From Pycnococcus provasolii (lineage: Eukaryota; Chlorophyta; Pseudoscourfieldiophyceae; Pseudoscourfieldiales; Pycnococcaceae), in NCBI GenBank assembly GCA_938743325.2, contig OW568861.1, positions 744,001-808,000 of the forward strand: a stretch of 64,000 nt of DNA, written 5' to 3'. The notes beneath the pieces were generated by a model. That model did no database searches. It saw nothing but the letters and a program-made list of their open reading frames with translations, and was not told where the DNA came from. A program made the translations under genes and the position numbers. Numbering within the stretch: the first letter of the stretch is position 1; every line of letters starts with the position of its first letter. This document shows, one piece after another, positions 6,484 through 43,900 of this stretch.

Positions 6484-6760
6484 GAAAGTAAAAGCAAACG
6501 TAATGAAAACCGCTAAAATTCCTATGGCTGTCACGGATCTCTGTTTTGTATGGAACCATCTGAACCGTTAAAGCTCTCTTCCCCCCCCCCAATCCCGCCC
6601 CCCCCCAGGGGGGATCCGTCTCTTGAATGGGAAATGCTTGCTTCCCCCCGCCCCCTGTCAGCTGAAAATCTAATATCTCGCGGGCCTGCTTTATCGTCCG
6701 TCCGTCCAGTCAGTCATTTTTTCCTGCTTTTTTCCTGCTTTTTTGCGCAGATCACGAATA
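6484..6760. other. Intergenic promoter region with poly-C runs
   Basis: 277 bp containing two C-homopolymer runs of nine to ten bases (about 6582-6606) and a repeated TTTTTTCCTGC shortly before the ketoacyl-CoA synthase ATG. No gene seen. Confidence 0.5.
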
Positions 6761-19200: not shown

Positions 19201-22200
19201 GGATGATCTGCACTCCAAAGTCGTGCCGCTGCTTTCGTCTCCAGTTACGCTTTCCAGCTCCGCCTTGAATTGTAGCTACGTTCGAAATCTGGCCGGATCG
19301 CCGCTTGCGACCATCGCTTAATAATCGCGACGAGCGTGGGGTCTCATTCACGGACTGCCCATCGCTGCGACCAGAAAGTCGCTGCGAGAATGCTTTTGCG
19401 ACAGAGACGGCTGACTTGACTGCAACGCGCACTCGCAGTCCCACAGAGTCGAACGAAACGCGCCTGCTCCAGGTCTTCCCATCAACGCTAAGCTTATTAT
19501 ACCCGGCGTAGCTCGAGCCCGAGTATATAGTTGGCGTATACCTGCCACGATCAAGGGAGGGGGGACTATGCTCTTCGGCGACTTCGCCTGAATCTTGGCG
19601 GTCGAGTCCAGGCGATGCAGCTCTCGCATTATAAGAAGGAAGAAATGCGCGTGCACTCCCGAATGCATCACGTACATGCAGGTTAGCACATGTGTTGTTG
19701 ATGATCCAGTACGGCGCCCACAAGCTTAGAGTGCGAAATGGCGGGCAACTGTCTGTATTTTCCGCACTCCGCGTCTCAAAGCGCACGCGAAGATTAGAGC
19801 TCCTGTTTGTTCCCGAAGCATCCTTTAAGCGCACCTCGGAACTGACTCGCAGCCCGGGTAAGTCGCTCAAAAGCGTTCGAGTCTTTCGCGCAAACCCATA
19901 CGTCATTCCTCGCGAATCTCTGTTGATCGGATGGTACACCTCTACATCTTTAGTACTTTGCCAGCTGCCAAGTTTGAGTTTCAGATTGATTGCCTTCTCC
20001 ATGTTAAACTCGTGCGACTCGGCACTCTGGCCGGCTTCGAGAAAGTAATTCTGCGAAATGTCACCCGAATGTAGGGTTATACTTACCGGAACAGGAAGGA
20101 GATTCATCAGTGCCATTGGTGGGCACAACTCCAGCTGGTAAATGTCAACGACCGGGCCATCGTCTAGGTCGTTTTCCATGGAACCCACGGCACCCGAAGT
20201 GTGCTCGGGAACGGACTCCTTTTTGACACGAAGAAAAAAGTTCAGGTCGTCCACATGGCTCAGTATTGCTGGACAGCTTATAATCCCCTCTTGCGAAGTC
20301 AACTTTCTCGGATTGAGGTCAATCACATCCTTTTCGGCCATCTTGTAGCCATCCGCGTGAACGTATAATCTACATCCTTTCTTGATACCCAGCGGCATTG
20401 GACAGACATCTCCAGGTTCGAACGGACCAAGAGTGAGTGTGTTTACGCCACCACTGCTAATGCTCCCTCTTCTCCCCCATTTCACACGTGCAGCCTCGCC
20501 ATCGTATGGTTCAGCTATCATCGATGATTGTCTTCGAGTGTTCAACAAGCTCTTCGTAGTGTTGCCGCTCACCTGACCGTGCCCCACATCACCCGGCAGA
20601 CGCATAATTAGATTCACGTCCGGGGATAATTCTGTGACACCTAGTGGCAGTGCATAGTCCAGCCGCACACGGGATGTGACCGTCAAGACTTTCTGGCGGC
20701 CATTGAGTTCAACCTCAAAAAGCACGGGAAACAGTCTATTCGAAATGGGTGAATTCGTGAGTGCGCCACGGTGCGAATATTCACTATTCGCGTAATGAAT
20801 CCATGCAGCGCATCGGCCAACTTTGTCAACTTGTACCCCATGGAGTGGTGCCCAGTCAGGATGATCGAAGGCGATACTGATGACCCGATGTTTCAAAGGC
20901 TTTTCCACATTAGGGTCCAACGTCTGCTGAGCTCCAGAGTTAGAGCTAGAGGATTGTGCCTTGCGCAGCTCTCCGATTGAAGAGTGCTTCATGTCAAGTG
21001 ATTCAGATGTCGGGATATCCTCAGGGGTTGTATACGGAGAGAAGAAGAGACGAATTCCAGTCTTATTTCGGATGCGATATAGCATCGTATGCTCGGAAGC
21101 TGCCGACGTTGAGCCGTGCCTTCTCTGCCTTGTGATTTCATCATTCAGAAGCGCATAACTGTCGGGAACACGCGTCACGCGCCTCTCTAACTTCGGTTCC
21201 TTTAAAGTTTTCTCAGATGTGATCATAGCGGGAAGGTAATACTGGCTAGAGGTGTCTTCAACGAGTCTCTCGAGCTCATCTGATTTTTCTCGCCACTGCC
21301 GGAGGAAGGCTTGGATGTCCTTGTACGCCTCAATTTGCGAGGGTCCAAACGACGCTTTCATCCGTTGCTTCGATAGTACATTCACATTCGCGGAAGATCC
21401 GAGCTTCACAAACTCTGCCTCAACTGGCCATTCTTCCACAGTGACATCCATCATATCATTGCTGGAATCAAGACAGTCAGCACCAAGCCGCGCTCTCACG
21501 CTAAGTTGTATTTGCATGTCAGGAGCTTCGCGCACGTCTTCGGAGGCTGTGCCTGTACCCCTCGAGAGAGTCGATGACTCGCCCGATGATGCGCCTGGAA
21601 GAGAATCGTTGCTGTCACTTCGCACCGGGTCTCTCAGTGTGGAACCGTCTTCATTCACCATCGGCTGCAAGTTCACGCTGTCGGCGCGTTGCGCTCTTGT
21701 TGCTGGAATTGAGCCGAAAGTTTCTTGCACAAGCGCGAGCTCGATATCATGGAGATAAGCGCGGAAGATGTCCAAACGAAATCCGTGTTCGCCGATTTTC
21801 TGCGATGGGGTCCGCAACGAACCGTAATCATTTGAGTGTATCGTCGCCTTGATTGGCGAATTAAAGGAACGCGCGAAACGAAGGGAATTCTTTGTATCCG
21901 CTTTCCTTTCATAGTCATCGTTAATGAGCGTGACGTGCACACCTTGCGCATTAAACTTCACATTTGTCACGCTTTTACGAGACGGCGAAGTATTCTCGTC
22001 AACTGCCGTTGGGGAATTGATTTTCTCGACCCCATCTTCGAGCTCTTCGCCATCGCCAGTATGTGATGCTGGCGTAACCGCACGCTTAATCACGTGCACA
22101 GCCTTCAGCATCGTACTAAGCGTATTGTGTGATAGGTCGATGTACAAATGGCCGATGCGCACACTCGCGTCGACCATCTTGGCAGAGTTTTGATCCGATT

Positions 22201-25200
22201 TTGGTACGTGAGTCTGCAAGGTCACGTCAGCGTGCAATGGGCGTAGCACTTCCGCGCGCATAGACTTCCCGTGGGAAGCTTCATAGACACAGTCCACCTT
22301 CAAGTCTCGCGCACCTACAACGAGCTCAACGTGGCCATCCCCACCCCAAAAGTAACCAACGCGCAAAGCATTCCATGCGAGCACAACCTCATCTTTCGTC
22401 TTCGCAATAAGGCTATCGCGCCAACTTGCCGGGCATGTGAGCGGGAGAGGCACATGCAGGTCAGAGCGTTCAATTACGACATTCACGTAGAACCAAGGAA
22501 TGCGCTCAAAATAAGCTGGCGGCAAATCCGGATAAGGCGAGCAGAAGGGTCGATACGTGTAGTTGCTGAAGACTTCCGAGATGTCTAAGATAAACTCGAA
22601 GTCAGTTTCATAAGGCCAGCAAAGCGTCGTTTCCTCGAGCTTGATTTCAATCACGTGCGGGCCGGATTCGCCGTCGATAGCTTGTATCACGTAGTCGAGC
22701 ATGAAAGCACGCTCATCCGAAGAGAAAGGCTCCCAGTTGTTCGTCACCGCAGGAGACGTGGGGAAGCGGCTCACTTTCTCGTCCGCAACGTAGGACGAAT
22801 TCAAGGCGTCTATGATTCCTCGCATCACACCGTGGCTTTCAGCCAATCTCGTGTCCGATATCTTCACGCCACGCGAGAAAACGCGAATACGAATAGATCG
22901 ACACTCATACGCTCCTCCCACAATCACGACAAGTTCCTTTAGGTCGACGAGACCAAGAGGCAAGCCGACACCGTTGTCGTGCATGACATTTCCAACAGAA
23001 CCTTTCTCGACGGCAATCAATGCGTCCGGAACTCGGGCGACAATTTCCCACCACGGCATTGCGCTGGATTCAAGACCAAGGACCTTTGGTGCTAGCGGTG
23101 GAACTGGTAGGGGGAACCCAGGTCGCGGCGTTGCTCGTGGCGGATCCTTGAACGTGCAAGGCTCGCAGCTGTTGTCGTATATCAGGCCCATCAGCAGATT
23201 GTACTGAATTTCGCCAAACACCGCGCTTAAGTAAGGGAAATCTGTCAGAAGGCGGAAATTAGGGCTGAAGTACATGCCGACAACAGCGTCGCCTGGATCG
23301 ATCACCTTGCGAACCTGCGATCGTTCTTGAGTCTCGGAACTAGGGTCTAGCATCATCCAGTAAATGCTCCAGCTCTGCAGCTCCGCAACGATGTCGAACG
23401 GTTTCTGAGACGATTTTAGCGTCGTCTCAGTACGATCATCATCAGATTGTTTATATTGATGGCCAAACAATACAGCGTCGTCCATTTGCGGTAAGTCGGC
23501 AAACATATCACACGTGCCTGCCTGGTCGTGACTCGCGGACCCGTCGTTAACCGACAGATCGTGAGCGCATGTCGCGGATCGGATGAAGGGTCCCATTTCT
23601 GGTATCCGCACGCGCAGGCTTGAAGATGATGTTGTCCTACGCGCCGATGATTTCTCACACGCACGCTCGTAAAACGCGCACGGCGCGGGTAGGTGCATAA
23701 TAGCTTGATTCGCGACAAGTCTGTACTTCTCAGTTGATAGACTATTGAGCGGCATATCCACCTGAACGCGAATTGCGCGAATTCGAAATTTCGGCTCTCC
23801 CACATCAACGGGATTTTTTACCGGCTCATGTGTCCTCGATGCATCCGAACTTTCGCCAAGACCGTCTGAGGCCTTCTTGGGTGTCTCAAAAAGCGCATGC
23901 ACGGAAGCCTCTTCTGCACTGAGCTCCTTCATCGTGTCAAGCAGTGAATTTGCAAAGAAGCGCACATCCTTGATGAAACGCAGCAGCACAAAAACCTGCA
24001 CGGCATTTAACGTCACGACAGTCTCGGGTGATCTTGGCGAAATTTCCTTCAGCCTAGACATGCGACGCAACCGATCTTCAGGAGTGTCGGTAACGCGGCT
24101 TCTCGAGCGAATCACGTCGTGAATTTCCATATCAGTCTCAAGAGCGACGTCATTGCGAATTTCGTGAACATCCTGTCCGCAGTTTACACCATGTGTTGTG
24201 TCTTTCTTGGGTGCGCAATCTTCGCTTGCTTCACTAGCTGGCACGTACGTATGATGAGCAAAGCGAATGGCCGGAAAATCATCGTTCGTATCACACGTGA
24301 TAATGTGTCGATATGGCTCCAGAATCTCCACAGGTTCAGAGGTGGAAAGGAGATAGAGGACGGCGATGCTCTCCAAGCTTCCTATCACATGCGACGCGAC
24401 ATCTCCACTGTTGGATGAATTTGGATAGGTCTCTCTTTCGAACCGCATATCCTCGACAACAGATGAGAGGAAAGGTCGCTCATTCATCCAGACGAAAAGA
24501 CGAGCACACGCCATATGCAGCTGTACACGGGTGCGCACCTTCTTTCTCCGCAAACCTGTGTTTCCTGCTGATGTCCGCATCGGAGGGGAATCATCAAACG
24601 ACAAGCGAGCGCCTTCATCTCTTGGCGAGACGAGGGATTCTGCGGATGACGCGGCGATGGCCACACGAAACTTACCAAACGTTCGCAGCAAGTCCTGAAG
24701 GACATCTATGCTAAGGCTGAGGCTAAGGATACTGACGTGGTTCACAACTGTGAGCTCGTTGATGTCGCTTTGAAAGTTCACCAGGCCACCAAACTGCGGG
24801 TTAGAGTCGTCAAGCATCTTGCGAAGCCACGCCTGCCCTTTCCTGGAACGGACCTTCTTTGTAAGCAGCACTCTTCGCCACACTTTGAACGAACAGAAGA
24901 GACGACTCCGAGGCGATGGATAAGCTCGTTTCAGCAGTCGCATGGGAAGCTGGGGACAGATGCTTCGCGGGCTCCACTTGCCGAAAGAAGTCGCGCCGTC
25001 TGCTTCAGAGCTCTCTGCGAAACTTGACTGCAAAGAGTCCAAGTCGACTGAATCTGCGCTCGTCGCATCGCTTATGCCTGAATCGTATCGATGCAGCATG
25101 CGACTTCTCTCGTCTGTCAATGGGCGCATTTCACCCTGGTGCACGACAATGCTTTCCACGGAATAGCTAAGCTCCCATCCAGCATCGCGACTCACCAAGC

Positions 25201-28200
25201 TAGCCATCGCGCGGCGAAGTTCCAACGTGGCTATTGCAGCCATGGAAGCATCCTCCGAGCGCAGCGAGAATCGCAGGCGAGGTAATGAGCACCGAAGTGA
25301 TATCACTTTTTTAAAACTCCTTCTGACAACCTTGTAGGCTTCCACCTCGCTGCGGCTTAGATGTTGAAGCTTCGAGGTGGTCACGAGGCCTTTGAGGCTT
25401 TGTACTAAGGCAGACATGTTGCGCACAGCCTGCGGACTCAGCGTAAGGGCAATCAAGGAACGAATGTTAAGCTTGGCGAGTGAAACTTGGTAGATCGTTG
25501 GCCCGCTGTCCTCGTTGAACACCGCTTCATTATACTGGCAAAGCGTCAGCGATAGTGGCGTGCGTTCGAGCACAGCTTCACACCGACATTTATCGCCAAT
25601 CGACCACAGCGAGACGTCCGTGACTATCGACAGATTCTGGCTGAATCTTGTGCCGACGTCGTGCGCGTTATCCTCTCGATCTTGTGTGAATCGCTCATCA
25701 TCACCGTCAACATTATTGAGATTGTACGAGCTTAGCAAGATAGTATTGCCGAGCACCATGACAAGCGATGGGCTCTTTGACACCTGTGCCGTGCTCGTGC
25801 GTGAGGCGTAAGAATAGGTGTTGCTGGCAGCGCCAACACCTCTTTCCGCCTCGGCTGGTCTACACGGCAAAATCAGGCAGACTTCGCCCAGCTGCGTGCG
25901 CACAACTGTGTTGGTCAGCCTTGCGCGTGCCAACATCAGCCGTGCGCTCTTGCTGAAGCATTTCCTCTCGCGAGATTCTGATCGCCTCGTCGCGCTGAGG
26001 ATGTCTTCGCCGACGGTGTCCACTGTATTGCGTCTTGCCAACTGGGCAATTGCAAGGCTTGGCGTGGCAAAGGATACTATCTTGCTGAACCAGGCGTGCG
26101 AGAATAGCACGTCCATTGCATCCGTTTCAAGTGACAGCTGTGTGGATCGGCATGACTGAAAGGGTGGCACCTTGTACCTAAGCGTGAAAAAGTGGCGGGA
26201 AGCTTCCTCCTTCCCATTTGCCGCATCGACCGACTCGCGCCGCAATGACGAAGCGACCGAAGATGAAGGCGAATCCTTTCCCTTTTCGCTCGGAGACTCC
26301 GGCGCAGGCGGCTCTTCAGCCACGCGCGGAACCCACGGCCGCTCTCCTTGCGGGGGACACTGAACAAGCCATGCATCAGGAAGCGACTCGTCGCTTCGAG
26401 GTGTAACGAACAGGCCTCTGCTGATGACCTCGGCATCAAGCGCACCGGCGCCGCTCACCACGTCCTCGTCTTCGTCTTTTCGACCTATCACGACAGTCAC
26501 CCCCACATCGATTGCGCTCACCTCCAGAGTATCCTTTTCACTGAAGTGAAATACCGCACTGATCTTAGGGCACTCGGCGCTCATGTACATCGCAACCTTG
26601 CGCTTGCGACCACTTGCCAGATGTCCAGCCGCATTGATGATCTTCTGCACGCTGCTGAACTTAGCCAGCTTCACACCGCGTCCAACGCCATGCTCTGCCC
26701 AGTGCCACCATCGGAATAGCGCAGCAGTTTCGATTCCCAGCGAGTCCTCGAGCTGTGCAAGTTCCGCGATTCCTTGACCCGTCGACAACACCGAAGCGTA
26801 CAGCCCGGCGTGCTCGATGCGCTTTCTCCGCCGCTCGGCTAGGTCAGCTAGCGGCACCTCCGTTCGATTGCGAAACAACGCTTTTCGCTCGTCAAGGACG
26901 CAGTGAATTGCATGACGCCACCACGCTTCTGGCGAGGCGGCGACGTCGTCTACAGGCCGCAGCCGGCGGAAGCGCCAGTGGCGATTGACGAGAGCGATGC
27001 CCGCCGCTTGCTCTGCAAGCACCCTGCAGCTGAGCGGCGTGGCATGGACGATGAGCGCCGTCGCCTCGGCATGCACGTCGAGCACAGCCGAATCTCGGGA
27101 GGAGCAGGTTCCTCTCTTCATAAGCCTTGGGCGGCGCAGCGCGGCACCGCGCCATACGACGTTCACCGATGCGCCCCATCGGTGTACGACGGGTTGCTCT
27201 TTCATGCCTGGAGTACCCACGAAGAGCTTGAGGCCTTTGACGTGCGCTTTTAAGTTGACGGCAGCGAGGCGCTCCTGCTGCTCCCCACGCAAAGCGTGGC
27301 GCACGCCAACTTCTCCGACGGAAAGCCGCACGTAAGGGGCAACTGCTTCGTCCCCCTTGCAAGCCCCACGACTTATCAACTTGACACTGAAGTCCGTCAC
27401 CTCGACATCAAAGAGCGACACGGCGCAGAATATCGCCGCATTGGTGACAGCCTCCGCGGCTCGCGCCGCAATCGTGCTGACATCCGTGTCCCACAGCAGA
27501 CTTTCGACAGCGTGCAACTGCGACGTGTGCACGAGCCTAGCTTTCCGCTGAACGCGTGCGTTATGCAAGGCTCGGCTGATTGGTGGCGGCGCGACTGCGT
27601 GGCACAGCTTCACCGTGACTTGCTCGAGTTTGACGTATAGGCGCCAGCGTCGTATTGCGACGTGCACGGCGGCGATGTGTAGTCTTTGGATGGCGACGGG
27701 CAGGCTTAGCTTGTGGAGAAGCGCGTGCGTGACGTTGACTTCCGTAAAGGTGAACGTGTGTTGGTTCCCTGCGTCGTCGCACCGGCCGATGTTAAGTTCC
27801 TTGAACTCCAGAACGTTTGCTGTTGCATACGCCAAGGCGTGGTTGCAAAGGTTCACGAGCGCACGCTTGGCTTGTGTCGATTGTATGGCGAGGCGCAGTA
27901 GTAGTACAGAGAGAGCTAGAAGCAGCAGTTTGTGGGCCAGCATAGGTTGCGTCACATAGAGCACGGCTGCGAGGAGGACGGTGTACATAGCAACGCTATA
28001 AGAGGCGTGTGACCCAAGGCTGCTACCTCTTACAGGCGGTGCGGCTGAGGCGTCGCGCGGCCATGACGCGCCACCTCCCACCGGGCCCATGGGCATGGGG
28101 GTGGTGGTGGTCATGCTCGTCGGGAACTTTCCGGGTACAATGAAGAGCCTCCTGAGCGGGCGAATCAACTTATTTACCCAATGCAAGAATGCAAAAATGC

Positions 28201-28237
28201 CATGCAAAACTGCGACGAGAAGAATATTATGCGACAT
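13211..28237 (-). CDS. VPS13-like bridge-type lipid transfer protein, 5008 residues, no intron
   Basis: A single open frame of 15,027 bp. C-terminal architecture is typical of VPS13: adaptor-binding (VAB/SHR-BD) repeats from about residue 2834 (RTLSLWAPYWIINNTCANLHV) and 3026 (VSNRIVLRNSSSIELEV), an ATG2_C/VPS13_C segment about 4392-4566 (ILGTVDILGTPVALISSVGTG ... GSMSKGLAAL), and a PH-like domain about 4612-4745. Two C2 domains are inserted at about 3554-3675 and 3779-3936, the first containing NDEFLGEVDIFL. The long middle is consistent with repeating-beta-groove bridge segments. Residues 4-20, 81-95 and 98-115 are strongly hydrophobic, unlike the soluble chorein start of VPS13 (no MLES-type opening). 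The C-terminal tail is acidic and helical. Such proteins move bulk lipid at organelle contacts. Start: ATG 28237; later ATGs would remove the first hydrophobic segment. Confidence 0.85.
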   Translation of the reverse strand: MSHNILLVAVLHGIFAFLHWVNKLIRPLRRLFIVPGKFPTSMTTTTPMPMGPVGGGASWPRDASAAPPVRGSSLGSHASYSVAMYTVLLAAVLYVTQPMLAHKLLLLALSVLLLRLAIQSTQAKRALVNLCNHALAYATANVLEFKELNIGRCDDAGNQHTFTFTEVNVTHALLHKLSLPVAIQRLHIAAVHVAIRRWRLYVKLEQVTVKLCHAVAPPPISRALHNARVQRKARLVHTSQLHAVESLLWDTDVSTIAARAAEAVTNAAIFCAVSLFDVEVTDFSVKLISRGACKGDEAVAPYVRLSVGEVGVRHALRGEQQERLAAVNLKAHVKGLKLFVGTPGMKEQPVVHRWGASVNVVWRGAALRRPRLMKRGTCSSRDSAVLDVHAEATALIVHATPLSCRVLAEQAAGIALVNRHWRFRRLRPVDDVAASPEAWWRHAIHCVLDERKALFRNRTEVPLADLAERRRKRIEHAGLYASVLSTGQGIAELAQLEDSLGIETAALFRWWHWAEHGVGRGVKLAKFSSVQKIINAAGHLASGRKRKVAMYMSAECPKISAVFHFSEKDTLEVSAIDVGVTVVIGRKDEDEDVVSGAGALDAEVISRGLFVTPRSDESLPDAWLVQCPPQGERPWVPRVAEEPPAPESPSEKGKDSPSSSVASSLRRESVDAANGKEEASRHFFTLRYKVPPFQSCRSTQLSLETDAMDVLFSHAWFSKIVSFATPSLAIAQLARRNTVDTVGEDILSATRRSESRERKCFSKSARLMLARARLTNTVVRTQLGEVCLILPCRPAEAERGVGAASNTYSYASRTSTAQVSKSPSLVMVLGNTILLSSYNLNNVDGDDERFTQDREDNAHDVGTRFSQNLSIVTDVSLWSIGDKCRCEAVLERTPLSLTLCQYNEAVFNEDSGPTIYQVSLAKLNIRSLIALTLSPQAVRNMSALVQSLKGLVTTSKLQHLSRSEVEAYKVVRRSFKKVISLRCSLPRLRFSLRSEDASMAAIATLELRRAMASLVSRDAGWELSYSVESIVVHQGEMRPLTDERSRMLHRYDSGISDATSADSVDLDSLQSSFAESSEADGATSFGKWSPRSICPQLPMRLLKRAYPSPRSRLFCSFKVWRRVLLTKKVRSRKGQAWLRKMLDDSNPQFGGLVNFQSDINELTVVNHVSILSLSLSIDVLQDLLRTFGKFRVAIAASSAESLVSPRDEGARLSFDDSPPMRTSAGNTGLRRKKVRTRVQLHMACARLFVWMNERPFLSSVVEDMRFERETYPNSSNSGDVASHVIGSLESIAVLYLLSTSEPVEILEPYRHIITCDTNDDFPAIRFAHHTYVPASEASEDCAPKKDTTHGVNCGQDVHEIRNDVALETDMEIHDVIRSRSRVTDTPEDRLRRMSRLKEISPRSPETVVTLNAVQVFVLLRFIKDVRFFANSLLDTMKELSAEEASVHALFETPKKASDGLGESSDASRTHEPVKNPVDVGEPKFRIRAIRVQVDMPLNSLSTEKYRLVANQAIMHLPAPCAFYERACEKSSARRTTSSSSLRVRIPEMGPFIRSATCAHDLSVNDGSASHDQAGTCDMFADLPQMDDAVLFGHQYKQSDDDRTETTLKSSQKPFDIVAELQSWSIYWMMLDPSSETQERSQVRKVIDPGDAVVGMYFSPNFRLLTDFPYLSAVFGEIQYNLLMGLIYDNSCEPCTFKDPPRATPRPGFPLPVPPLAPKVLGLESSAMPWWEIVARVPDALIAVEKGSVGNVMHDNGVGLPLGLVDLKELVVIVGGAYECRSIRIRVFSRGVKISDTRLAESHGVMRGIIDALNSSYVADEKVSRFPTSPAVTNNWEPFSSDERAFMLDYVIQAIDGESGPHVIEIKLEETTLCWPYETDFEFILDISEVFSNYTYRPFCSPYPDLPPAYFERIPWFYVNVVIERSDLHVPLPLTCPASWRDSLIAKTKDEVVLAWNALRVGYFWGGDGHVELVVGARDLKVDCVYEASHGKSMRAEVLRPLHADVTLQTHVPKSDQNSAKMVDASVRIGHLYIDLSHNTLSTMLKAVHVIKRAVTPASHTGDGEELEDGVEKINSPTAVDENTSPSRKSVTNVKFNAQGVHVTLINDDYERKADTKNSLRFARSFNSPIKATIHSNDYGSLRTPSQKIGEHGFRLDIFRAYLHDIELALVQETFGSIPATRAQRADSVNLQPMVNEDGSTLRDPVRSDSNDSLPGASSGESSTLSRGTGTASEDVREAPDMQIQLSVRARLGADCLDSSNDMMDVTVEEWPVEAEFVKLGSSANVNVLSKQRMKASFGPSQIEAYKDIQAFLRQWREKSDELERLVEDTSSQYYLPAMITSEKTLKEPKLERRVTRVPDSYALLNDEITRQRRHGSTSAASEHTMLYRIRNKTGIRLFFSPYTTPEDIPTSESLDMKHSSIGELRKAQSSSSNSGAQQTLDPNVEKPLKHRVISIAFDHPDWAPLHGVQVDKVGRCAAWIHYANSEYSHRGALTNSPISNRLFPVLFEVELNGRQKVLTVTSRVRLDYALPLGVTELSPDVNLIMRLPGDVGHGQVSGNTTKSLLNTRRQSSMIAEPYDGEAARVKWGRRGSISSGGVNTLTLGPFEPGDVCPMPLGIKKGCRLYVHADGYKMAEKDVIDLNPRKLTSQEGIISCPAILSHVDDLNFFLRVKKESVPEHTSGAVGSMENDLDDGPVVDIYQLELCPPMALMNLLPVPVSITLHSGDISQNYFLEAGQSAESHEFNMEKAINLKLKLGSWQSTKDVEVYHPINRDSRGMTYGFARKTRTLLSDLPGLRVSSEVRLKDASGTNRSSNLRVRFETRSAENTDSCPPFRTLSLWAPYWIINNTCANLHVRDAFGSARAFLPSYNARAASPGLDRQDSGEVAEEHSPPSLDRGRYTPTIYSGSSYAGYNKLSVDGKTWSRRVSFDSVGLRVRVAVKSAVSVAKAFSQRLSGRSDGQSVNETPRSSRLLSDGRKRRSGQISNVATIQGGAGKRNWRRKQRHDFGVQIIHAPEPFNLTKVIIVSNRIVLRNSSSIELEVRQRGADVGFNHRLPLDSVLPYHWDDARKPMELQMRPLDDAVGTWKWSGRIRLDKEGRYGMRIMSSEEGETYRSRTPQQLILIVDVSLMETTLMVTILNGSTCPPYQIVNDSSVRLVYWQREAAVQDFRRAFMRAAGRGGPLPSDTEAESATDSAEHFTNIRAYDSVAPGESRDYAWDEPSVGTKKLRVVADGSLGPRDFVLDNITFDQTQCIVVHTSTHTSDSTRSVEPTQEAGGGESPTETPTYQRLKSVFFAANNRNDASSSRKLIYMTITAEGSTRVVRFSDTHESRLETEKEKEEKLAKTIARVEGQLQIVDDELRSLLQDSMIGTASVPSPRPIGATRSNAGDKVDKTESRNQFTFTPQVWKRSISYKGTDSADSEESDDDSPEQGANKTPSFRAAQLAKSHSRKNRRFGIALFNPKKSMKASKSMPPETKEQQLVPETAATPTRSRFGRASSYNERRSATMRAATLSARDDSQTSAGATEPIDEDEMTSKATTEDDTNASVAGAVEGGELIVFLDRGEDVVPKERSARCDTYAILTILSSDEDAHDDNKQPGVERTMRTPVIRRSASPTFKREMMFTSVHSDDVLVVSLYAKDRRIGPFTNDEFLGEVDIFLNDVDTRPDKVVLPVKYQLSRRTAKDRVQGSVYVALSWNVNPVEQNKIILRLKRRALEEKRERIAQLTDDRCDHAIRNPFLIDERRNELVLNTSFVNRTDNSSNHAGLNGGVWDHNLTKRRNGQVLVRVIAARGLIGPSHQPDGILSRAILGINKMGSTLVSNFAHMPSGTRRAASSLPDASEVNPSVTPDAPHEARGSVDARADASTAAVECYVRLGIKGREETQATGVVQGFQGDPVWNEDKVLHKVDPNGTLEIAVYVPRKVGKDHLLGKSRIRLRELTSGQPIYAWIPIFEDVRSGGGSPLTGSSQRRADSWPARHSNDRRRMRKVGELRIRLQWITNADVALGGGDVDVPNAMVAQVRFAGFGISLFERQQLGTQREWMHILLEDMALIARQENSPLGEHKTKKQLFFALGSAQIDNQLVSAQEPVVVARHDLSSYDISRDKNRRSTTGMSVSHLHDDSLYGYKGFGENDHEYLDAYVDDATLLRSPSTFAHTCSFDPICHGMESNAFTRIHEKYLESQEALTPGVIDDRAGTSASESTSQSAHSRGEHSKPLLYCEVQMLSNSHFERLLVDCLPIDVQLDEEFLLTAVEFGRTVANELGGPSGIAAANAAAVAAATEPSLVLSDFFRNSHLDITSLDRKESREAAARGAGWLYFRDFCVRELQVHLTLTRSPRAESKRRHLSTVMGLNLVDVNAVPLRLAEIHYADLFEMTSDLQRRLLTTVKSTILFEFYKILGTVDILGTPVALISSVGTGVVDFFANPARGIMSSPEDFARGMASGTVSLLRNSMYGVFNTAAKVTGSMSKGLAALSMDDDFIMHLKAPNRTSADASVFRGVQDLGFGLIQGVTGLVYDPIRGAEREGLKGFVKGLISGIAGVAMKPAAGVFEFAAKTASSVGGGIQALGDDIGRRDQHRKRIAPPRASGYSNRSGMTGASADAIVAAWKPELAFRIGAGKFAGDTPLEYVATGQARGVNGVLFTDKRIIVLSIHRRVIWTSEYKNTQLVSSNERTLTTNLLCNVKVGKMHLRVPDLRMCACVGVVRAGDSSRTILLGGVRVPWHRQIRCNARDAHRLLHAAAAQMIARFGGRVSDKQGDSDNLLDNGKVRKLMSFKQDFTLLPQVESADKPGTSENSAEEESDVIGADAGADAVKTEEEKTEEYLEQGNASILSGDAEKSRHRSVRLGGEAKSVRRRLDVAAAAIADEEEKEGEAVAIMAADLEDANTSDNADPQALASVFDAAAHMCERGLRAGAPADMAHYVSAVLTMCAAAAEAASASAATDLTRLGHAIGFLMKGYQDGKVFSEQVLRGLQAVLLEARDACVRLVDDSKMNEEEVSKLAEANIYE

Positions 28238-28928
28238 CGTGATAGCCTGATCACTGTCAAGTCTGTAATGTGTCGCGTAAACTTTTTACCACTTGAAAAA
28301 CCATTCTCATACTTCGTACAACACACACACCTCTCTCTGCAACACCATGTTCACCATGTTCACCATGTTCACATGTTGATGTCAATGTCAATATGTTGGT
28401 GGAAGGCACGCACGGTACTGATCGATGCCTGCCAATATGTACTTGCCCTAATACTGTATGTAAGATGAAAATGCGAATATTGGCCAGAAGGAGGAATGGG
28501 ATCCCAGGCCATCAACGGACGTCATCCGGCTCCTCCGACTTCTCGTCCTGCTCCTGCTCTTTCTCCACCTGAAACAACTGCCTGATCATCTTCGGCTTCG
28601 GCTTCGTCTACATACCTCTTCGTTGAACTCGTCCTCGTGCCTGACTGCCTCCCTTGTCTGCAACTCGTCCTGACTTCCTGCAACGATGCGGAACGTGAGC
28701 ACACGCGGTCTGGTTGTTTTTCACGTTTTCTGGCCGTTGGTTCAAGCCTTCAAGGTATGTACAACACGCACAACCAACATGGGGATAGGTTCATAAGTAC
28801 TAGCTACCGTAGGGGACCGGGTTAGGGTTAGGGTTAGGGTTAGGGTTCGCGGTTCGTGGTTGGTATCTCCTCCGGTGTCTCCGGAGCTCTGGATTCTCCT
28901 CTCGCATTTTTGATTTATTTCGCAGACG
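28238..28928. other. Divergent promoter region with tandem repeats
   Basis: 691 bp between the VPS13-like gene and the FKBP-like gene. It holds three tandem ACCATGTTC units (about 28345-28374) and a TTAGGG array at 28819-28847. Small frames here lack protein-like features. Confidence 0.55.
28819..28847 (+). promoter_or_regulatory. TTAGGG array upstream of the FKBP-like gene
   Basis: Four full perfect TTAGGG units plus partial ends, finishing about 82 bp before the ATG at 28929. It is far from any visible chromosome end. A promoter (telo-box-like) role is inferred from recurrence at other starts. Confidence 0.6.
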
Positions 28929-35789: not shown

Positions 35790-35936
35790 ATTAAAGAGAG
35801 AATGATGAAAGGCGGCGGCTGGGGGGAAAGAACCGAGAAAGGACGGGACGTGGGAGGGCAGGGCAGGGTGGCGGCGGCGACGGGGAAAGGAAAGAATCGG
35901 TCGGGTCCCCGATTCATTCTGGTCCCCTGATTTTCA

Positions 35937-37335
35937 GACGGGAGGCACGAGCGGACAGGCTGTGTGCACGGGAACACTGCTCACCACGCAGGATAGCACG
36001 AAGCAGTACGTCATCACCGCGCACCACTGCCTCGGCGACTCGGGCGGGCAGAGCGTCGACTACTGGGGATTCCTCTTCAATTACGAGCGTGAGTGCAGCC
36101 GCTTCGCCGCACCGCGCCGCTTCGACGAGTTTGTGCAGGGTGCGCGTCTGCTGTTCGCGGATCGACCGAGCGACACCATCTTGCTTGAAATCACGAGCCC
36201 GATTCCGAGCCACTACCGTCCATACTACCAAAGATGGGATACGGAGGTGGACAACATGCCCCAGAGCAGCTTCGCAATCCACCATCCCAGCAGCGACTAC
36301 AAGAAGATCAGCCTCGATCGCCACCGCGCGTCTCTCACAACGTGCACGTTCTGCGACCGCGTGCCGAACACGCACTTCCTCGTCAGTGGGTGGGACGACG
36401 GCACCACGGAGCGCGGCAGCTCGGGATGCGGACTGCTTGACGCCACGACGAAGCGTCTCGTGGCCGTGCTCAGCGGAGGTAGCGCGAGCTGCCCCGACAA
36501 CAACGGATACGACTTCTTCGGGCGTCTCAGCCGCGCGTACGACAGCGGGCTTGGAAGGTGGCTGATGCCCGTGAACACCGGCGTGCGCAAGATGGACGCG
36601 CGAGATGGTTCGTCGACGTACGCCGTGAACTCCGTTGCATCGTCGACGCCAGCCATGACCGCAGATCGCCTGCTTGCTCTGTCACCCGACGGGTCGGGTG
36701 CGGGAGTCGTCACCACGGAGGGTGGCTCCGCGGGACTGGTGCAGGTGAAGCTGAATGCGTGGCCCGAGGGTGCGCGCACCGTGGAGGTGATTGTGGCCAC
36801 CTCCGATACGACCGAGGGCCAGGTGTCGTGCATGGGAATGGCGGGTGGTCTGGCGCTCAGTGACACGAGCGTGCGCCTTTCGGACGAGAGCGCCCTTGCC
36901 GCGCAGCTCGGTGGCACGACCTTTTCGGAGCGGTGCACGCTTCGCTTCACGTCGTCGACGTCGTCGCGCCAGTTTGCGGGCGGCGTGACGAACGGCGCGG
37001 CGTGGTACCCTGCGAGTGGAACTTTGCAGGACGCCCTGTACGCGTCGACGGGCGCGCTCGAAATGACGATTGAGGTGAGCGACACGAAAGCTCCGTCGGC
37101 ACACCAGCTCGATCGCATGGCTGCGGACCACGAGCGTGCGCTATCAGGCTTTGTGATGCGAGCTGCGGGTGCGAGCGGCGCGCTCGCGGGACGTTCTCTG
37201 ATGGAAGCGGTTCCGTGTCAACAAAAGAAAAAGCAAACTTCTCAAGATATTCGTTACTGTTGTTGTTTTTTCCCACCACGCGTGATTTCCCTGCTCACAT
37301 CGTTTCGACCTACCCTATTCTTTCTTTGCAGCTGA
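35937..37335 (+). CDS. Trypsin-like (lysyl-endopeptidase-like) serine protease, 5' end not found
   Basis: The frame is open from 35809 but has no ATG before the protease domain. CTGATTTTCAG at 35926-35936 could be a splice acceptor, so I start the feature there. The triad is visible: His in VITAHHCLG, Asp in RPSDTILLEI and Ser in GTTERGSSGCGLLD, where GSSG replaces GDSG. The layout, with paired Cys and the sequence SGGSASC later, resembles bacterial lysyl endopeptidase (S1). A ~150-residue beta-rich domain (VEVIVATSDTTEGQVSCMGM ... RCTLRFTSS) follows. A signal peptide and propeptide are missing. The last ~25 codons are low-quality sequence and the stop overlaps the end of the Myb gene by 21 bp. 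It may be a gene with a short upstream exon or a fragment. Confidence 0.6.
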
Positions 37336-39536
37336 TGCATGTGGTGTTTGTTTGTCAGCCATCGGCGTCGCCGGTGGTGGTATCGCCACAACAAGCGGCG
37401 TCACGTGCTGATGGTGGTTATGGTAATGCTGAAACGCGTTGCCTTGGTAGGCAGGTGGTGCATCGCCATGCCCGAGGTGGGGAGTCGCCACTTCGTTGTT
37501 GAAGACAGAGCGATCGCCGTGAGTGAAGACACCCCCTGTCGTCGGCGTGTTCATGTACGGTAGTGACGGTAGAGGCCATGCGAACGGGACGAACATGAGT
37601 TGGTTGGCATAGTGGGCTGGCTGTCCGTCCGCAACGTTGCTGGTGTCGTCTTCAGGCTGACGACGCTTCACACCCGTCAGCGGTGTCCACGACGACGGAG
37701 AAGCCGCAGGCGCCGCAGCAACAGCAACAACGGGCAATCCCGCAGAGTTTTCCAGCCTCCCATCTTCGGCGAGTTTCTGCTGCTTTGCCCGGTTAAGCGC
37801 GACTTTCCAGCGTTCCCTCACAGCACTGTCCAACCGGTTGCTGCCCAGCGCATGCGCGATCTTCGACCACCGGTTGCCGAGCTCTCGCTGTAGTGCGATA
37901 ATCTTCGCATCTTCGTCACGCGAAAAAGGCTCGCGATTCACGCCTGTGTCAAGGTGATCAAGCCATCGCTGACGGCAGCCCTTGGCATTGCGCTCCCCAC
38001 CCATCTTCAGGGAGATGCCGTCCCAGTCTTTCGCGCCGTGCGTTTGCACAAGCTCACGAAGGTTGCTGTCCTCCTCGTCCGTCCAACGCACGTACCTTTG
38101 ACCCTTGCAGTCAGCCAGTTGGACGTTCGATGTGTCGATGTCCCTGCCCAATTGTTGCCGTAGATCCAATTTGCTGTGCTGCAGATTCGGACACGCAGCC
38201 GCCACTTCACCACTTACGAGCACGGCGGGTGGCAATGATGGATGACCAGCGGCAGGTGGTGATGTTGTATCTTCGGCGAGTTTGTGCTGCTTTGCCGGGT
38301 TAAGCGCGACTTTCCAGCGATCCCTCACAGCATTGTCCAACCGGTTGCTGCCCAGCGCATGCGCGATCTTCGACCACCGGTTGCCGAGCTCTCGCTGTAG
38401 TGCGATAATCTTCGCATCTTCGTCACGCGAAAAAGGCTCGCGATTCACCCCTGTGGCAAGGTGATTAAGCCATCGCTGACGGCAGCTCTTGCCATCGCGC
38501 TCCACACCCATCTTCAATGAGATGCCGTCCCAGTCTTTCGCGCCGTGCGTTTGCACAAGCTCACGAAGTTTGCTGTCCTCCTCGTCCGTCCAACGCACGT
38601 GCCTTTGACCCTTGCAGTCAGCCAGTTGGACGTTCGATGTGTCGATGTCCCTGCCCAATTGTTGCCGTAGATCCAATTTGCTGTGCTGCAGATTCGGACA
38701 CGCAGCCGCCACTTCACCACTTTCGAGCACGGCGGGTGGCAATGATGGATGACCAGCGGCAGGTGGTGATGTTGTATCTTCGGCGAGTTTGTGCTGCTTT
38801 GCCGGGTTAAGCGCGACTTTCCAGCGATCCCTCACAGCATTGTCCAACCGGTTGTTGCCCAGCGCATGCGCGATCTTCGACCACCGGTTGCCGAGCTCTC
38901 GCTGTAGTGCGATAATCTTCGCATCTTCGTCACGCGAAAAAGGCTCGCGATTCACCCCTGTGGCAAGGTGATTAAGCCATCGCTGACGGCAGCTCTTGCC
39001 ATCGCGCTCCACACCCATCTTCAATGAGATGCCGTCCCAGTCTTTCGCGCCGTGCGTTTGCACAAGCTCACGAAGTTTGCTGTCCTCCTCGTCCGTAAAC
39101 GGATGACAACGACGAGGACCACCATCATTATCATCAATATCATCACGGAGATGATCCTCCTCCTCGGACTCGGAGGACATGATTGACCGATTACCACGAG
39201 CCTCATGAGCATCATCAGCAAGAGGGTTCGCCGGTAGCTGCTGGTGCACCGCTAGGTAGTGAACGAGCACGACGTCGTCCGTGGCGGTGGTCACGGCGCC
39301 TGGCGAGTCGCCGTCGCCGCCTGACTGCGTGGTAATCATCGGCGGTTCCAGCAGCCAATAGCATCTTCGCCGGAGTTGCGACGGCGCCTCGGCGTGCGCG
39401 TAGTAGCAGTTCAGGCAGTCTTTGTTAAGCACCTGGAGTTTTTCGTGCGTCTCCTTGACTGTTTTCCCATCCTTCTTCTTCTGCCAGTTGTGCCCGTCAC
39501 GTCGGAAGTTGCGCTGCTCCTTACGATTCACAAGGT
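37315..39536 (-). CDS. CG-1 domain fused to three R2R3 Myb pairs (5' end incomplete)
   Basis: About 740 codons. The first ~65 residues match the CG-1 DNA-binding domain of CAMTA factors: NRKEQRNFRRDGHNWQKKKD, GKTVKETHEKLQVLNKDCLN, CYYAHAEAPSQLRRRCYW, and after a short insert DDVVLVHYLAV. The first ~45 residues of a normal CG-1 domain are absent. Upstream there is no ATG and an in-frame TGA occurs, with an AG at 39538-39537 that could be an acceptor. After an acidic linker come six Myb repeats as three R2R3-like pairs, about 169 residues each. R2-like: TDEEDSKLRELVQTHGAKDW ... GKSCRQRWLNHL. R3-like: FSRDEDAKIIALQRELGNRW ... AVRDRWKVAL. The tail is Pro/His-rich. The first ATG after CG-1 (MSSESEEED) could start a Myb-only protein. 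A nuclear transcription factor is likely. Confidence 0.75.
37780..39100 (-). repeat. 507-bp coding tandem repeat (three Myb pairs)
   Basis: GAGATGCCG landmarks occur at 38012, 38519 and 39026, so the period is exactly 507 bp (169 codons). The two units nearest the N-terminus differ at only a few residues; the C-terminal unit is more diverged (GGERNAKGCRQRWLDHLDTG). This shows an old pair followed by a recent unit duplication. Confidence 0.92.
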
Positions 39537-40008
39537 CTATTCACTTGCAAGTGTGACGGCAACCAAGGGTTGCTAAGAGGTGTAAGGTAACGACCGTCTT
39601 CGTTACACAACTTACACACACACGCACGCGTACACGAGAGGGAAGAGTGAAGTATATATACGTTGACGGGGTGACGTCGACACCGGGAACCTCACCTAGA
39701 GGTCTAAGAGGTAAGTAGTTCTAGTGTAAAGGGAAGACACCTGGGGCAAAGCTTGAGGGGATAAGGAACGGTACCGAAGAGGTATCCTCTTCGGAGGAGG
39801 TATCCTCAAGACATAAAGTCCGAGACTGTTCTCCAACCAATACCCTTGTAGGTAGAGGATTAGGTCCTAGGATTAGGGTTTCCACTCACACCATGCGGTT
39901 GGTCGGGAAAAAGCAAAACCCTACCGGACAGCTCGTCCTCCCGAAAAGGGGGGAGTGAACTCCCCAGTGTTATTTCCCCTTGATATAAAGCCTTATATTA
40001 GATTATAT
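39537..40008. other. Upstream region of the CG-1/Myb gene
   Basis: No gene seen. TATATATA at 39653-39660 reads as a possible TATA box for the minus-strand gene, about 120 bp from the visible coding start. The reverse strand between this box and the CG-1 coding region has no ATG. Short telomere-like words (GGATTAGGGTTT) lie near 39870. Confidence 0.45.
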
Positions 40009-40536
40009 ACCACCTCCATTTCAGAAAATTTTGGAAACCCCTTTCCCGACAAGATCCCCGTTTGGGGGGGTGGTAATTGGTAATTTGTTTTTCCCCCGCC
40101 CTAATCCCACGTAATTTCTATGACGTAGTTCTATCAACCCCCCTCCCCCCGGCAACTCCCCCGGGAGAATTTGAGAATTTTCCCCGACCAACTTGGTCGG
40201 GGAGGAATTCCCGGGGGGGCAGGGGGGAGGGTTTCCAAAATTTTCTGAAACGGAGGGATGGTAGGTGATATATTTTATGGCGTACCATCCCTCCGTTTCA
40301 GAAAATTTTGGAAACCCTCCCCCCTGCCCCCCCGGGAATTCCTCCCCGACCAAGTTGGTCGGGGGAAATTCTCAAATTCTCCCGGGGGAGTTGCCGGGGG
40401 GAGGGGGGTTGATAGAACTACGTCATAGAAATTACGTGGGATTAGGGCGGGGGAAAAAACAATTACCAATTACCACCCCCCCAAACGGGGATCTTGTCGG
40501 GAAAGGGTTTCCAAAATTTTCTGAAATGGAGGTGGT
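40009..40536. mobile_element. 528-bp near-perfect palindrome with nested inverted repeats (foldback/MITE-like)
   Basis: Two arms of about 254 bp (40009-40263 and 40283-40536) are reverse complements with only a few differences, around a ~19-bp AT-rich spacer. Each arm is itself bounded by short inverted repeats (TTTCAGAAAATTTTGGAAACC at the outer end, its complement at the inner end). Each also contains a smaller hairpin, CCCCGACCAACTTGGTCGGGG. The outer ends read ACCACCTCC and GGAGGTGGT. It is best read as two copies of a ~250-bp MITE inserted head to head, or one foldback element. Its frames are palindrome artefacts. No clear target duplication is seen. High arm identity suggests a recent event or gene-conversion upkeep. 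Confidence 0.8.
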
Positions 40537-40901
40537 AGGCACTAGGCAAGGCGTAGGCAAAATATTTTTATATTGCCATGGGGGGGGTGTTTTTCCCCCA
40601 AACCCCGAATTTTTCTTGACTAAACTCTTACGCTCCAAGACGGAATCCACGTCTGCAATCTTCTTGTTCAGCGCGCCTAACCCTAATACACCCGTGTGTT
40701 CGTTTCGGAACCTTCGAATTTATATACATCCTAACTCCGGCCTTACACTTTACAGTCCTTAAAGGCGTTTCAGGCGTGTGTATCGTAGTACTAATATTAC
40801 TTAAGTGTTGAGGCCTCAAAGAAGAAGAATGGCCTCACGTTAAGATCTATCAATATTCCACGTCACTAAGGAACCCTTAACTTTCTCTCGTTCAAAGAAA
40901 T
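40537..40901. other. Promoter region of the WD40 gene
   Basis: 365 bp with no gene. It contains a G-run (about 40579-40586), a CCTAACCCTAA word near 40677 and AT-rich TTTATATACATCC near 40719. Confidence 0.45.
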
Positions 40902-43900
40902 ATGCAGCATCAGCAGCTGCAGCAGCACAGTGATGTTGATAGTGATGTTGATCTTGGTGATGTTGATGTCGAACCTTTTTCTTCTGGGACGTCTCTCCAA
41001 CGGCCTCTGACTTCTTTTCTTGTTAAGAAGTCAGCTCCTCCCCATACGGCCCTTCGTGATGTTGACGATGATGAACACACCTCCTCCTTGAGTTCACCGG
41101 TGGACCTCAGTCACCACAACAAGGTTCTGCACGCAGATTCAACTTCCGAAGAGTCGTCGTCGTCTGAGCCTGACCCTGACAAGGTGAATCATATTTCTCA
41201 GGAGCATCAGCCGCTCTTAACGGACTTTCCATCCTTCGACGGACACGTCACGTCAGGACCTCTCGCGGGAACACGCGTGCGCGTCGTCGGGAAGCGGGGG
41301 CCGCAGTGGCGTATCGCCATCCTAGACACGTTCGGAGTCGGACTCACGCCTGACCTCGTGGGACAGACGAGGTTCCTTCACGCCAGACTAGTGGCGAAAG
41401 GAGACCCGCCAGCTGAACTGAAAGAAAGATACGCCTTCTCGGAAGAGTCGGCGAGACGGCGAAAGGCGAACAAAGCGCAAGACGAGGCGGCACGTGACGC
41501 AATAAACAGAGAAAAAGACCGCGCAAAAAATGCCGAGAGCGAAAGGATCGTACAGGCGGAGAAGGAGGCGAGACGCGCAAGGGCAGCGCAGGAGGCGGCG
41601 GCGGCGGTGCGCGATGGACGCAACTTTCGCATCGTTGCAGACGCTGCGCCCGTCTTCAACATGCCGAGCATTCACGCGACGCAGCTGGGAATCAAAAAGA
41701 AGCTCACGAGCGTGAGGTGCTCGGACGAGGAAGTGCGCGACGAAGACGGGAACCTGCAGTGGATCAAGCTGGCGTCGTGGACGTATGATACGGACGCGTG
41801 GATGCTCGTCGACGGTTCGTGCTTTGGCAAAGGCGTGCTCGCGCAGGCGCATAGGCCTCTTGGCCTCGTCGTCGACGGGGCATCAGGTGTGAGCGCGGCG
41901 GAGAAGACGCTTGCGGCAAACCACTACAGCGCCGGCACTGCGCGAGAACGTCTTGAGCGCCTTGTCGCGTTTCAGGAGAAGCTGCAGGAGGAGGATCGTC
42001 TTCGCGAGCTTGAGGATGAAAAGAAGTTGAAAGAAGTGGAGGAAATAACACAACAGCAGGAAACAACAGCGACCACGAAGAGTCCAACGATGCCACCACC
42101 GCCGCCACCTCCAGCCGTTGCGCAGCCTCTGGAGGATTTGCTGTACCAGAACGAGCAGCAGCAACAGCAGCTTATTGCAGCTCAGCCGAAGATGATGCAA
42201 TCTAGCGACGAACGGCTTGCAGCTGCGCGCGCGCGCCTTGCAACGGCTGAGGTTGTCCTCGCAGATCGTGAGGATGAATTGGACAATCGACTTTCACGCC
42301 TGAATTTCAAGCGTAGCTTGCACGAGGAGATTATTGAAGTGCAGGGCGAGGGCCAAGATCATCACATCAGGAAGGAGATTGCTGGACACGAGGAGCGGGT
42401 GGATGCTGCACGAGAAAGGCTTGTTCAAGCGCGTGACGAGCTAAAGCTTGTACGTGACGACATTCGTGATCTCGAGCAGGTTGCGAAAAAAGAGGCTCTG
42501 CGTGCCGCCTTCCGCCTCGAGCCGGCGGGAGCGGATGAAGATAGCGAATGCAATGCCGACGACGATTGTAGCAGCGAGCACCCAATGCATCCACAGGCTG
42601 TGGAGCGATTGCGCGAGCTTGTACGGCTCAGGAAGCTTTTGATCGAGGCGAAGAAGAGCTCCTCGAAGGAGAGCTCCGTCGAGGAGGTCACGAAGCCGTC
42701 ATCGGCACGACGACTGTCAGCTCGCGAACGGCTTGAGCTGCACCGCCAGCGCGTTACAAAGGCGGGCAACGAATGCCAGGCTGCTGCGCAGCGCGCGGCA
42801 TTCTCCGAGTCACATGCTGCCAGTCTACCAGCGGAGGCGGCAAGTGTGCACGCACAGAATACGTTGGCATCCCGCGTCAGATCTCTGGAGGAGGAGATCA
42901 GACGTGAGTGGATCGGAGCTGGAAGGCCGCTTCCCACAAACGTGCTTGATGGCGGAGAGGAGGGCTCCAACGCTGTGACATATCTTCGCAAGTGCGACGC
43001 CAGAAAGGCGGCACTTAAGAAAAGTCAGCCTGAAGCTTCACCTGGTACCGCGACGACGACGTCGTCCGAGCGCCGCCTTCTCTGCCATCCACATTGGCTG
43101 TATCGCTTCAGCCAGTCGGACGACAATGGTGCCTACCATGGCAGTGACGATTTCGTGAACGTCTACAACGCGCCAACGAGTGTAGCACCTGGAATGGCGT
43201 ACACGTACCAAGGAGAGCCGGTGGAGTCTGGCGTGACTCAGGGAGAGGGCGCTCCGCCGGCAAGCTTTGCGTGCTGTGCAAGAACGAATCGCGTCTTTGT
43301 TGGATTTGACAAGACAATGGAGCGCGATCGTTCCCGCGCACCTGTTCTCGTATACGACGTCGAGTCCGGGAAGATGATTGGACGCTGTCGCGGCGGACGA
43401 GGCGGAGAGGAGATGCCGGAATTGCAGCACGTCAAGGCCCTCGCGCTGCACAGGCTGACACGTGACGAGAAGGATCGTGAACTTCTCCTTGCGCTGGGTG
43501 CGGATCGCACGGTGCTTGTTTGGGATGCCTCCACCCTTCAGTTCCTGAGCTTCATCAGCGCCGGCGCTGAGGGCTTCGCGCGCGTGAGCGGGGTATTCGA
43601 TGCCGAGACGCACTCCTACAAAAGCCCGGTGACATGTCAATCACTGCATCTCGACGTGCTCCCCGCTTCGTTCAACGGCGCAGAGAGCGAGCGCCTCGTG
43701 GTGTTTGCGTCAAGTCTGGGCAAGCAGCGCACCGATGCGACCTCGTGGGACATCACGCAAGCGGTTGCCGACGCTGTGAGCCACGTTGATTCCGCGTCAG
43801 GCATGTTAACCGGCGAGGCGCGGTACGTGCAGTCGTTCGTTGGGCAGCATGCCAAGCACGTGACCTGCGTCTCGACAATTGTTCTAGCTGCGGAGGATGA

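What the first reader, a model, noticed from the sequence alone, without database searches (positions are those of the whole stretch)
37315..39536. CG-1 (CAMTA) DNA-binding domain joined in frame to three R2R3 Myb pairs
Seen: one frame carries the NRKEQRNFRRDGHNWQKKKD / CYYAHAEAP / VLVHY blocks of CG-1, then six Myb repeats. Known: CAMTA factors normally follow CG-1 with TIG, ankyrin and IQ parts, and R2R3 Myb proteins have one pair. I know of no described family combining them. If real, it is a transcription factor with two unrelated DNA-binding systems and a high-valency Myb array.
Basis: partly seen in the sequence, partly recalled or inferred. Interest (0 to 1): 0.8.

Follow-up and report, generated by a model that had tools for sequence, protein, structure and literature searches.

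The report
Six-repeat Myb gene beside broken CG-1
One open reading frame really does hold most of a CG-1 DNA-binding domain followed by six Myb repeats, but the CG-1 part lacks its first third and any start codon, so the cell most likely makes only the Myb protein and the two-domain fusion is unproven.

Summary
The minus-strand ORF 39540-37315 (741 codons) carries a genuine CG-1 segment (Pfam 88.9 bits) and six Myb repeats (264.7 bits) in one frame. The interpretation, a working two-system transcription factor, is only partly supported. The CG-1 match covers profile positions 41-105 of 116. A TGA sits directly upstream, and my searches of the DNA up to the divergent gene did not find the missing third. 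No in-frame ATG precedes residue 68. The lost third includes a tryptophan needed for DNA binding in Arabidopsis CAMTA3 (PMC10417383). The ATG at 39180, between CG-1 and the Mybs, has an excellent local start context: no lower than any of 20 window starts, reached by 1 of 310 internal Mets. Most likely the present protein is a six-repeat Myb factor starting there, and the CG-1 piece is a remnant of a CG-1 gene or former fusion. A spliced fusion (about 0.27) or a misjoin near 39540 (0.13) remain possible. Three R2R3 pairs on a 507-bp unit are a new arrangement of a known kind: brown algae have a 6R-MYB with doubled R1R2R3 (PMC8854648).

The parts
37315..39540 (-). Stop-to-stop open reading frame of 741 codons (coordinates include the stop codon)
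39247..39534 (-). CG-1 domain, C-terminal two-thirds (Pfam best stretch residues 3-67 = 39534-39340, profile 41-105/116; the VVLVHYLAV block follows after an insert of about 20 residues relative to the recalled CAMTAs)
39541..39543 (-). TGA stop directly upstream of the ORF, at the point where CG-1 homology breaks off
   Evidence: (sequence)
39181..39246 (-). 22-codon linker between CG-1 and the probable start of the Myb protein; codon usage nearly neutral (+1.8 bits in the ORF frame; -1.6 and -22.1 in the others)
39178..39180 (-). Probable start codon of the Myb protein (context AATC-ATG-TCC; residue 121 of the ORF)
   Evidence: scores no lower than any of 20 window starts (those scored leave-one-out); 1 of 310 internal Met codons scores as high
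38806..39105 (-). Myb pair 1 (R2-like + R3-like repeats)
38299..38598 (-). Myb pair 2; its 507-base unit differs from unit 1 at 3 bases
37792..38091 (-). Myb pair 3, diverged in the recognition helices (KSCRQRWLNHL to KGCRQRWLDHL; DNAVRDRW to DSAVRERW)
37318..37791 (-). C-terminal tail rich in P, H and Q; no Pfam family assigned to it
39537..39615 (-). Candidate 5' intron with a consensus donor near the CG-1 edge (GTAAGT...AG, 79 nt, phase 1). Splicing adds 3.3 bits to the CG-1 match, but the open stretch before it has no ATG and does not match the CG-1 N-third. Doubtful
40008..40537 (.). Foldback element in the upstream gap (245-nt arms 96% complementary; TA at both outer edges), probably a Stowaway/mariner-like MITE
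   Evidence: the element class is recalled/inferred

Best explanation
The locus is a probably intron-less R2R3-Myb gene whose DNA-binding pair was amplified in place by tandem duplication of a 507-bp unit, giving six repeats in three pairs. It is most likely translated from the ATG at 39180 into a protein of 621 residues: an acidic N-terminus, three Myb pairs separated by linkers of about 70 residues, and a P/H/Q-rich tail. It would act as a nuclear DNA-binding regulator whose repeated pairs raise affinity for clustered sites; pair 3 has changed recognition-helix residues and may bind other DNA or none. The CG-1 segment just upstream and in frame is real CG-1 coding sequence, broken at about 39540 so that its first third and start codon are gone. 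It is most likely a recent remnant of a CG-1 gene or of a CG-1-Myb fusion that lost its 5' end, and not a working second DNA-binding domain. Shown: domain homology, the truncation of the match, failure to find the missing third in the upstream gap, start-codon context, repeat structure. Inferred: actual translation start, function, remnant status.
For: CG-1 match begins at profile position 41, with a TGA immediately upstream. CG-1 N-third not found upstream: best of 182 donor-anchored candidates scores 15, against 64 for the human-Arabidopsis control, and unrelated parts of the window reach 42; Pfam lists nothing at E<=10 for the three upstream minus-strand frames. Codon-usage windows centred 39550-40810 are negative in all three minus-strand frames, and the signal turns positive in the ORF frame from the window centred 39490. 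First in-frame ATG is residue 68. ATG 39180 has a start context no lower than any of 20 local starts; 1 of 310 internal Mets reaches it. No intron was confirmed in the window: the two GTAAGT sites at coding ends that I followed up are ordinary stop codons, and several Pfam domains lie nearly whole in single ORFs (DEAD 1-166/167, Helicase_C 2-110/110, 5-FTHF ligase 1-186/186, HAD hydrolase 3-191/191). The residue equivalent to CAMTA3 W26, whose mutant lost DNA binding, is in the lost part (PMC10417383, passages; mapping). Myb units 1-2: 3 nonsynonymous, 0 synonymous differences; units 2-3: pN 0.044, pS 0.042.
Against: The CG-1 piece does not look decayed: 30 of 36 columns identical between the two recalled CAMTAs are kept, no stop in 98 codons, coding-like codon usage, and it ends at the natural domain end before an open in-frame linker. 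A remnant must therefore be young. A near-ideal start at 39180 sits awkwardly with a recently broken fusion unless that start was already in use. One upstream segment of 24 codons (40677-40606, minus) scores 10.0 bits of coding signal, and a short or divergent exon could escape my tests. The intron survey was not exhaustive, and some domains are covered only in part by their best stretch (USB1-like 36-241/242, peptidase C69 85-386/402, cNMP 42-81/89). Introns in intron-poor genomes cluster at 5' ends (recalled), which is where one would be needed. The start model rests on 20 first-ATG guesses, 8 of which score below zero when left out.
Confidence: 0.53

Rival explanations
1. A real CG-1-Myb fusion is expressed: one or more short 5' exons upstream of 39536 carry the start codon and a divergent or complete CG-1 N-third, spliced in phase 1 to the acceptor ATAG|ACC.
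For: CG-1 frame, codon usage and conserved residues are intact; an AG lies at the homology edge in a usable phase; a GTAAGT...AG candidate of 79 nt adds 3.3 bits (96.5 to 99.8); the gap from 39180 to the WD40-like gene, 1721 bp, is the second longest of 20 listed gaps, though 530 bp of it is the foldback element.
Against: No upstream segment was found to resemble the CG-1 N-third; coding signal there is negative in windows, with one 10-bit segment as the exception; none of the 7 consensus-like donors in 39557-41300 follows an open stretch with a Met; no intron was confirmed elsewhere in the window (partial survey); a strong start lies downstream.
Confidence: 0.27
2. Assembly misjoin at about 39540: the true genome has an intact CG-1-Myb (or CG-1) ORF continuing upstream, and the contig was joined to unrelated DNA.
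For: Coding signal and homology stop abruptly in mid-domain; an inverted repeat of the kind that can mislead assemblers lies nearby.
Against: The foldback begins about 470 bp away from the break, not at it; no reads or second assembly to test with; no whole genome held.
Confidence: 0.13
3. Both are made: a short Myb-only protein from 39180 and a rarer long form with the partial CG-1.
For: Consistent with both the good start context and the preserved CG-1 frame.
Against: Needs the unproven upstream exon as well.
Confidence: 0.05

Closest known systems
[quoted passage not shown]
   Same: C-terminal two-thirds of CG-1, 53% and 51% identical to recalled Arabidopsis CAMTA3 and human CAMTA1 segments. 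Of the five CAMTA3 mutated sites that abolished DNA binding, four are present (W75, H88, Y102/Y103, Y132), as is W118, whose mutant still bound weakly
   Different: First third with W26 missing; no TIG, ankyrin or IQ family listed; followed by Myb repeats
R2R3-MYB proteins
   Same: Each 507-bp unit encodes an R2-R3-like pair; best solved relative c-Myb 1h88, E 5.7e-25
   Different: Three pairs per protein, and R3 recognition helix NAVRDRW in place of c-Myb NAIKNHW (alignment)
6R-MYB of brown algae (PMC8854648)
   Same: Six Myb repeats in one protein
   Different: [quoted passage not shown] here a tripled R2R3 pair with near-identical copies

Membership tests
CAMTA family | Complete CG-1 domain | tested here: not met
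   Profile 41-105 of 116 only; N-third not found upstream
CAMTA family | TIG, ankyrin repeats, IQ motifs after CG-1 | tested here: not met
   No such Pfam family listed at E<=0.01
CAMTA family | Residues whose mutation abolished CG-1 DNA binding in CAMTA3 (W26, W75, H88, Y102/Y103, Y132) | tested here: not met
   W26 position absent, the others present (PMC10417383, passages)
CAMTA family | Calmodulin binding | not testable with these tools
   Needs protein
R2R3-type MYB | Two adjacent Myb repeats of R2 and R3 type | tested here: met
   Six stretches; solved Myb proteins align best to pair 1, 2 or 3 (best stretches 147-245, 316-414, 485-584)
R2R3-type MYB | Only one pair per protein | tested here: not met
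   Three pairs
6R-MYB of brown algae | Doubled R1R2R3 | tested here: not met
   Unit of duplication is one pair, 507 bp

The most novel reading that the evidence does not exclude
A spliced transcription factor that joins a CG-1 domain to an amplified array of three R2R3 Myb pairs, reading calcium-linked CGCG-type sites and Myb sites with one protein, in an intron-poor protist.
Probability: 0.25. Interest if true: 0.62.

Novelty: new variant of a known kind. Interest (0 to 1): 0.36.

Why it matters
If the fusion were real it would be the first CG-1+Myb architecture in the literature that I could search, and a case of CG-1 working without the TIG/ankyrin/IQ apparatus. On the likelier reading it is still a clear case of a DNA-binding pair amplified within one gene, with near-identical copies and a third copy changing in its recognition helices at a nonsynonymous/synonymous ratio near 1. 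It is also a warning that a same-frame domain pair in raw sequence need not be one protein.

Tried and rejected
Frameshift or sequencing error hiding the CG-1 N-third: a frame-shifted stretch just upstream (LCNEDGRYLTPLSNPWLPSHLQVNR) looks faintly CG-1-like by eye, but joining it adds only 1.4 bits (97.9 against 96.5), codon usage there is negative, and skipping the 13 bases it needs fits no GT-AG intron (read from the sequence). Rejected.

Intron evidence elsewhere: GTAAGT at 31905(+) and 32126(-) lie at ends of coding segments but are ordinary stop codons (V-stop, K-stop). Other donor-like sites listed were not followed up one by one.

Relatives: viral contigs and genome contigs gave no relative by tblastn; these collections are viral and prokaryotic, so this says little. 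The foldback end sequence is absent from viral contigs (exact pattern).

Structure: single-sequence AlphaFold models were poor (mean pLDDT 40.1 and 40.4), so no fold search was made. No CG-1 chain appeared among the 34 solved sequences matched by the ORF at E<=0.01. tRNA and Rfam (gathering) scans of the window were empty.

Literature: listings (20 of 48 papers listed; 0; 8; 0; 0; 0; 12 of 40; 12 of 47; 10 of 11). Passages only, no whole paper: PMC6873476, PMC8591267, PMC8428840, PMC10417383, PMC4222949, PMC7744605, PMC4827209, PMC8854648. PMC4222949 names CAMTA among families of stramenopiles that follow traits; the main text of PMC4827209 on microalgal factors holds neither CAMTA nor CG-1.

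Full report
What is there. The finding lies on the minus strand. A 741-codon stop-to-stop ORF, 39540-37315, carries CG-1 (PF03859, 88.9 bits, best stretch residues 3-67 = profile 41-105 of 116) and six Myb repeats (264.7 bits); TIG, ankyrin and IQ families are not listed at E<=0.01. The CG-1 segment is 53% and 51% identical to recalled Arabidopsis CAMTA3 and human CAMTA1 segments and keeps 30 of the 36 columns those two share. Its VVLVHYLAV end follows an insert of about 20 residues. Codon usage trained on 14 window genes favours the ORF frame over the CG-1 part (+20.9 bits against -38.5 and -19.4); the 22-codon linker after it is nearly neutral (+1.8, against -1.6 and -22.1).

What is missing. 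CG-1 homology starts only at profile position 41, and a TGA lies directly before the ORF. I looked for the first third in four ways: local alignment of six-frame translations to the recalled CAMTA segments (nothing upstream stood out from the rest of the window); Pfam on the three upstream minus-strand frames (nothing listed at E<=10); codon usage (all windows centred 39550-40810 negative; best upstream segment 10.0 bits over 24 codons at 40677-40606, not CG-1-like by eye; its significance was not tested); and all 182 GT donors in 39557-42500 spliced in phase 1 to the acceptor at 39536 (best 15, control 64; unrelated parts of the window reach 42). None found it, though a short or divergent exon could escape. 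A 79-nt GTAAGT...AG candidate intron raises the CG-1 score from 96.5 to 99.8 bits, but the open stretch before it has no Met and does not match the CG-1 N-third. In CAMTA3 the W26A mutant in that missing third lost DNA binding (PMC10417383, passages). The other five mutated sites are present in the window.

Where translation starts. The ORF has no Met before residue 68. I compared the context of the first ATG of 20 window ORFs with 310 internal Mets. Met121 (39180, AATC-ATG-TCC) scores 5.49, no lower than any of the 20 starts scored with themselves left out; 1 of 310 internal Mets is as high. Met68 scores -3.16. The pattern A at -3 with TC after the ATG is found in 6 of 20 starts and 5 of 310 internal Mets. 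Limits: the starts are first-ATG guesses, and 8 of the 20 score below zero. No intron was confirmed in the window, in a survey that was not exhaustive: two consensus donors at coding ends turned out to be stop codons, and several domains lie nearly whole in one ORF (for example DEAD 1-166/167, 5-FTHF ligase 1-186/186), while others are matched in part only (for example USB1-like 36-241/242; peptidase C69 85-386/402, whose N-terminus I read by eye in the same frame).

The Myb array. Three 507-bp units, the third incomplete: units 1 and 2 differ at 3 of 507 bases, all nonsynonymous; units 2 and 3 differ by 11 nonsynonymous and 3 synonymous changes over 321 bases (pN 0.044, pS 0.042). Pair 3 has changed recognition-helix residues; that these contact DNA is recalled from c-Myb work. 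The near-identity means copy number could vary between strains or be misassembled; the divergence of unit 3 argues that at least two copies are real. A 6R-MYB made of doubled R1R2R3 is reported in brown algae (PMC8854648, passages), so six repeats are not new in themselves; tripled R2R3 is a variant.

Weighing. Same-frame continuity is weak evidence: about 15% by chance (0.44 times one in three). The intact CG-1 frame argues for recent function. The missing third, missing start, downstream start and lack of confirmed introns argue against a CG-1-Myb protein being made now. I put Myb-only plus remnant at 0.53, spliced fusion at 0.27, misjoin at 0.13, both forms at 0.05. The organism was not identified; no whole genome is held; eukaryotic origin is inferred from the genes (VPS13-like, DEAD-box, USB1-like), and algal origin was not shown.

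Print. Searches of open-access full text, seen as listings (three of them capped) and passages of selected papers, showed no CG-1+Myb protein; most subscription papers and eukaryotic protein databases were not searchable.

Noticed in passing
40008-40537: A nearly perfect foldback (245-nt arms, 96% complementary, 5-nt centre) with TA at both outer edges, like a Stowaway/mariner-type MITE (class recalled); its end motif has 4 matches in the window, all inside it.
   Followed up: partly
13214-28285 (-): A single 5024-codon ORF for a VPS13-like giant protein (VPS13_VAB and C2 domains in its second half).
   Followed up: partly
whole window: Start-codon habit: A at -3 and TC after ATG in 6 of 20 first-ATG starts against 5 of 310 internal Mets.
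   Followed up: yes
37315-37335: The trypsin-like ORF 35809-37335 (+) and the Myb ORF (-) converge and overlap by 21 bases at their stop codons.
   Followed up: no
39526-39544 (-): GTGAAT occurs twice 13 bases apart at the CG-1 break (sequence), which could be a scar of a small rearrangement.
   Followed up: partly
6674-8887: A FAE1-type ketoacyl-CoA synthase-like protein matched in 3 stretches over 738 residues, which suggests large inserts between conserved blocks, like the insert in the CG-1 segment.
   Followed up: no
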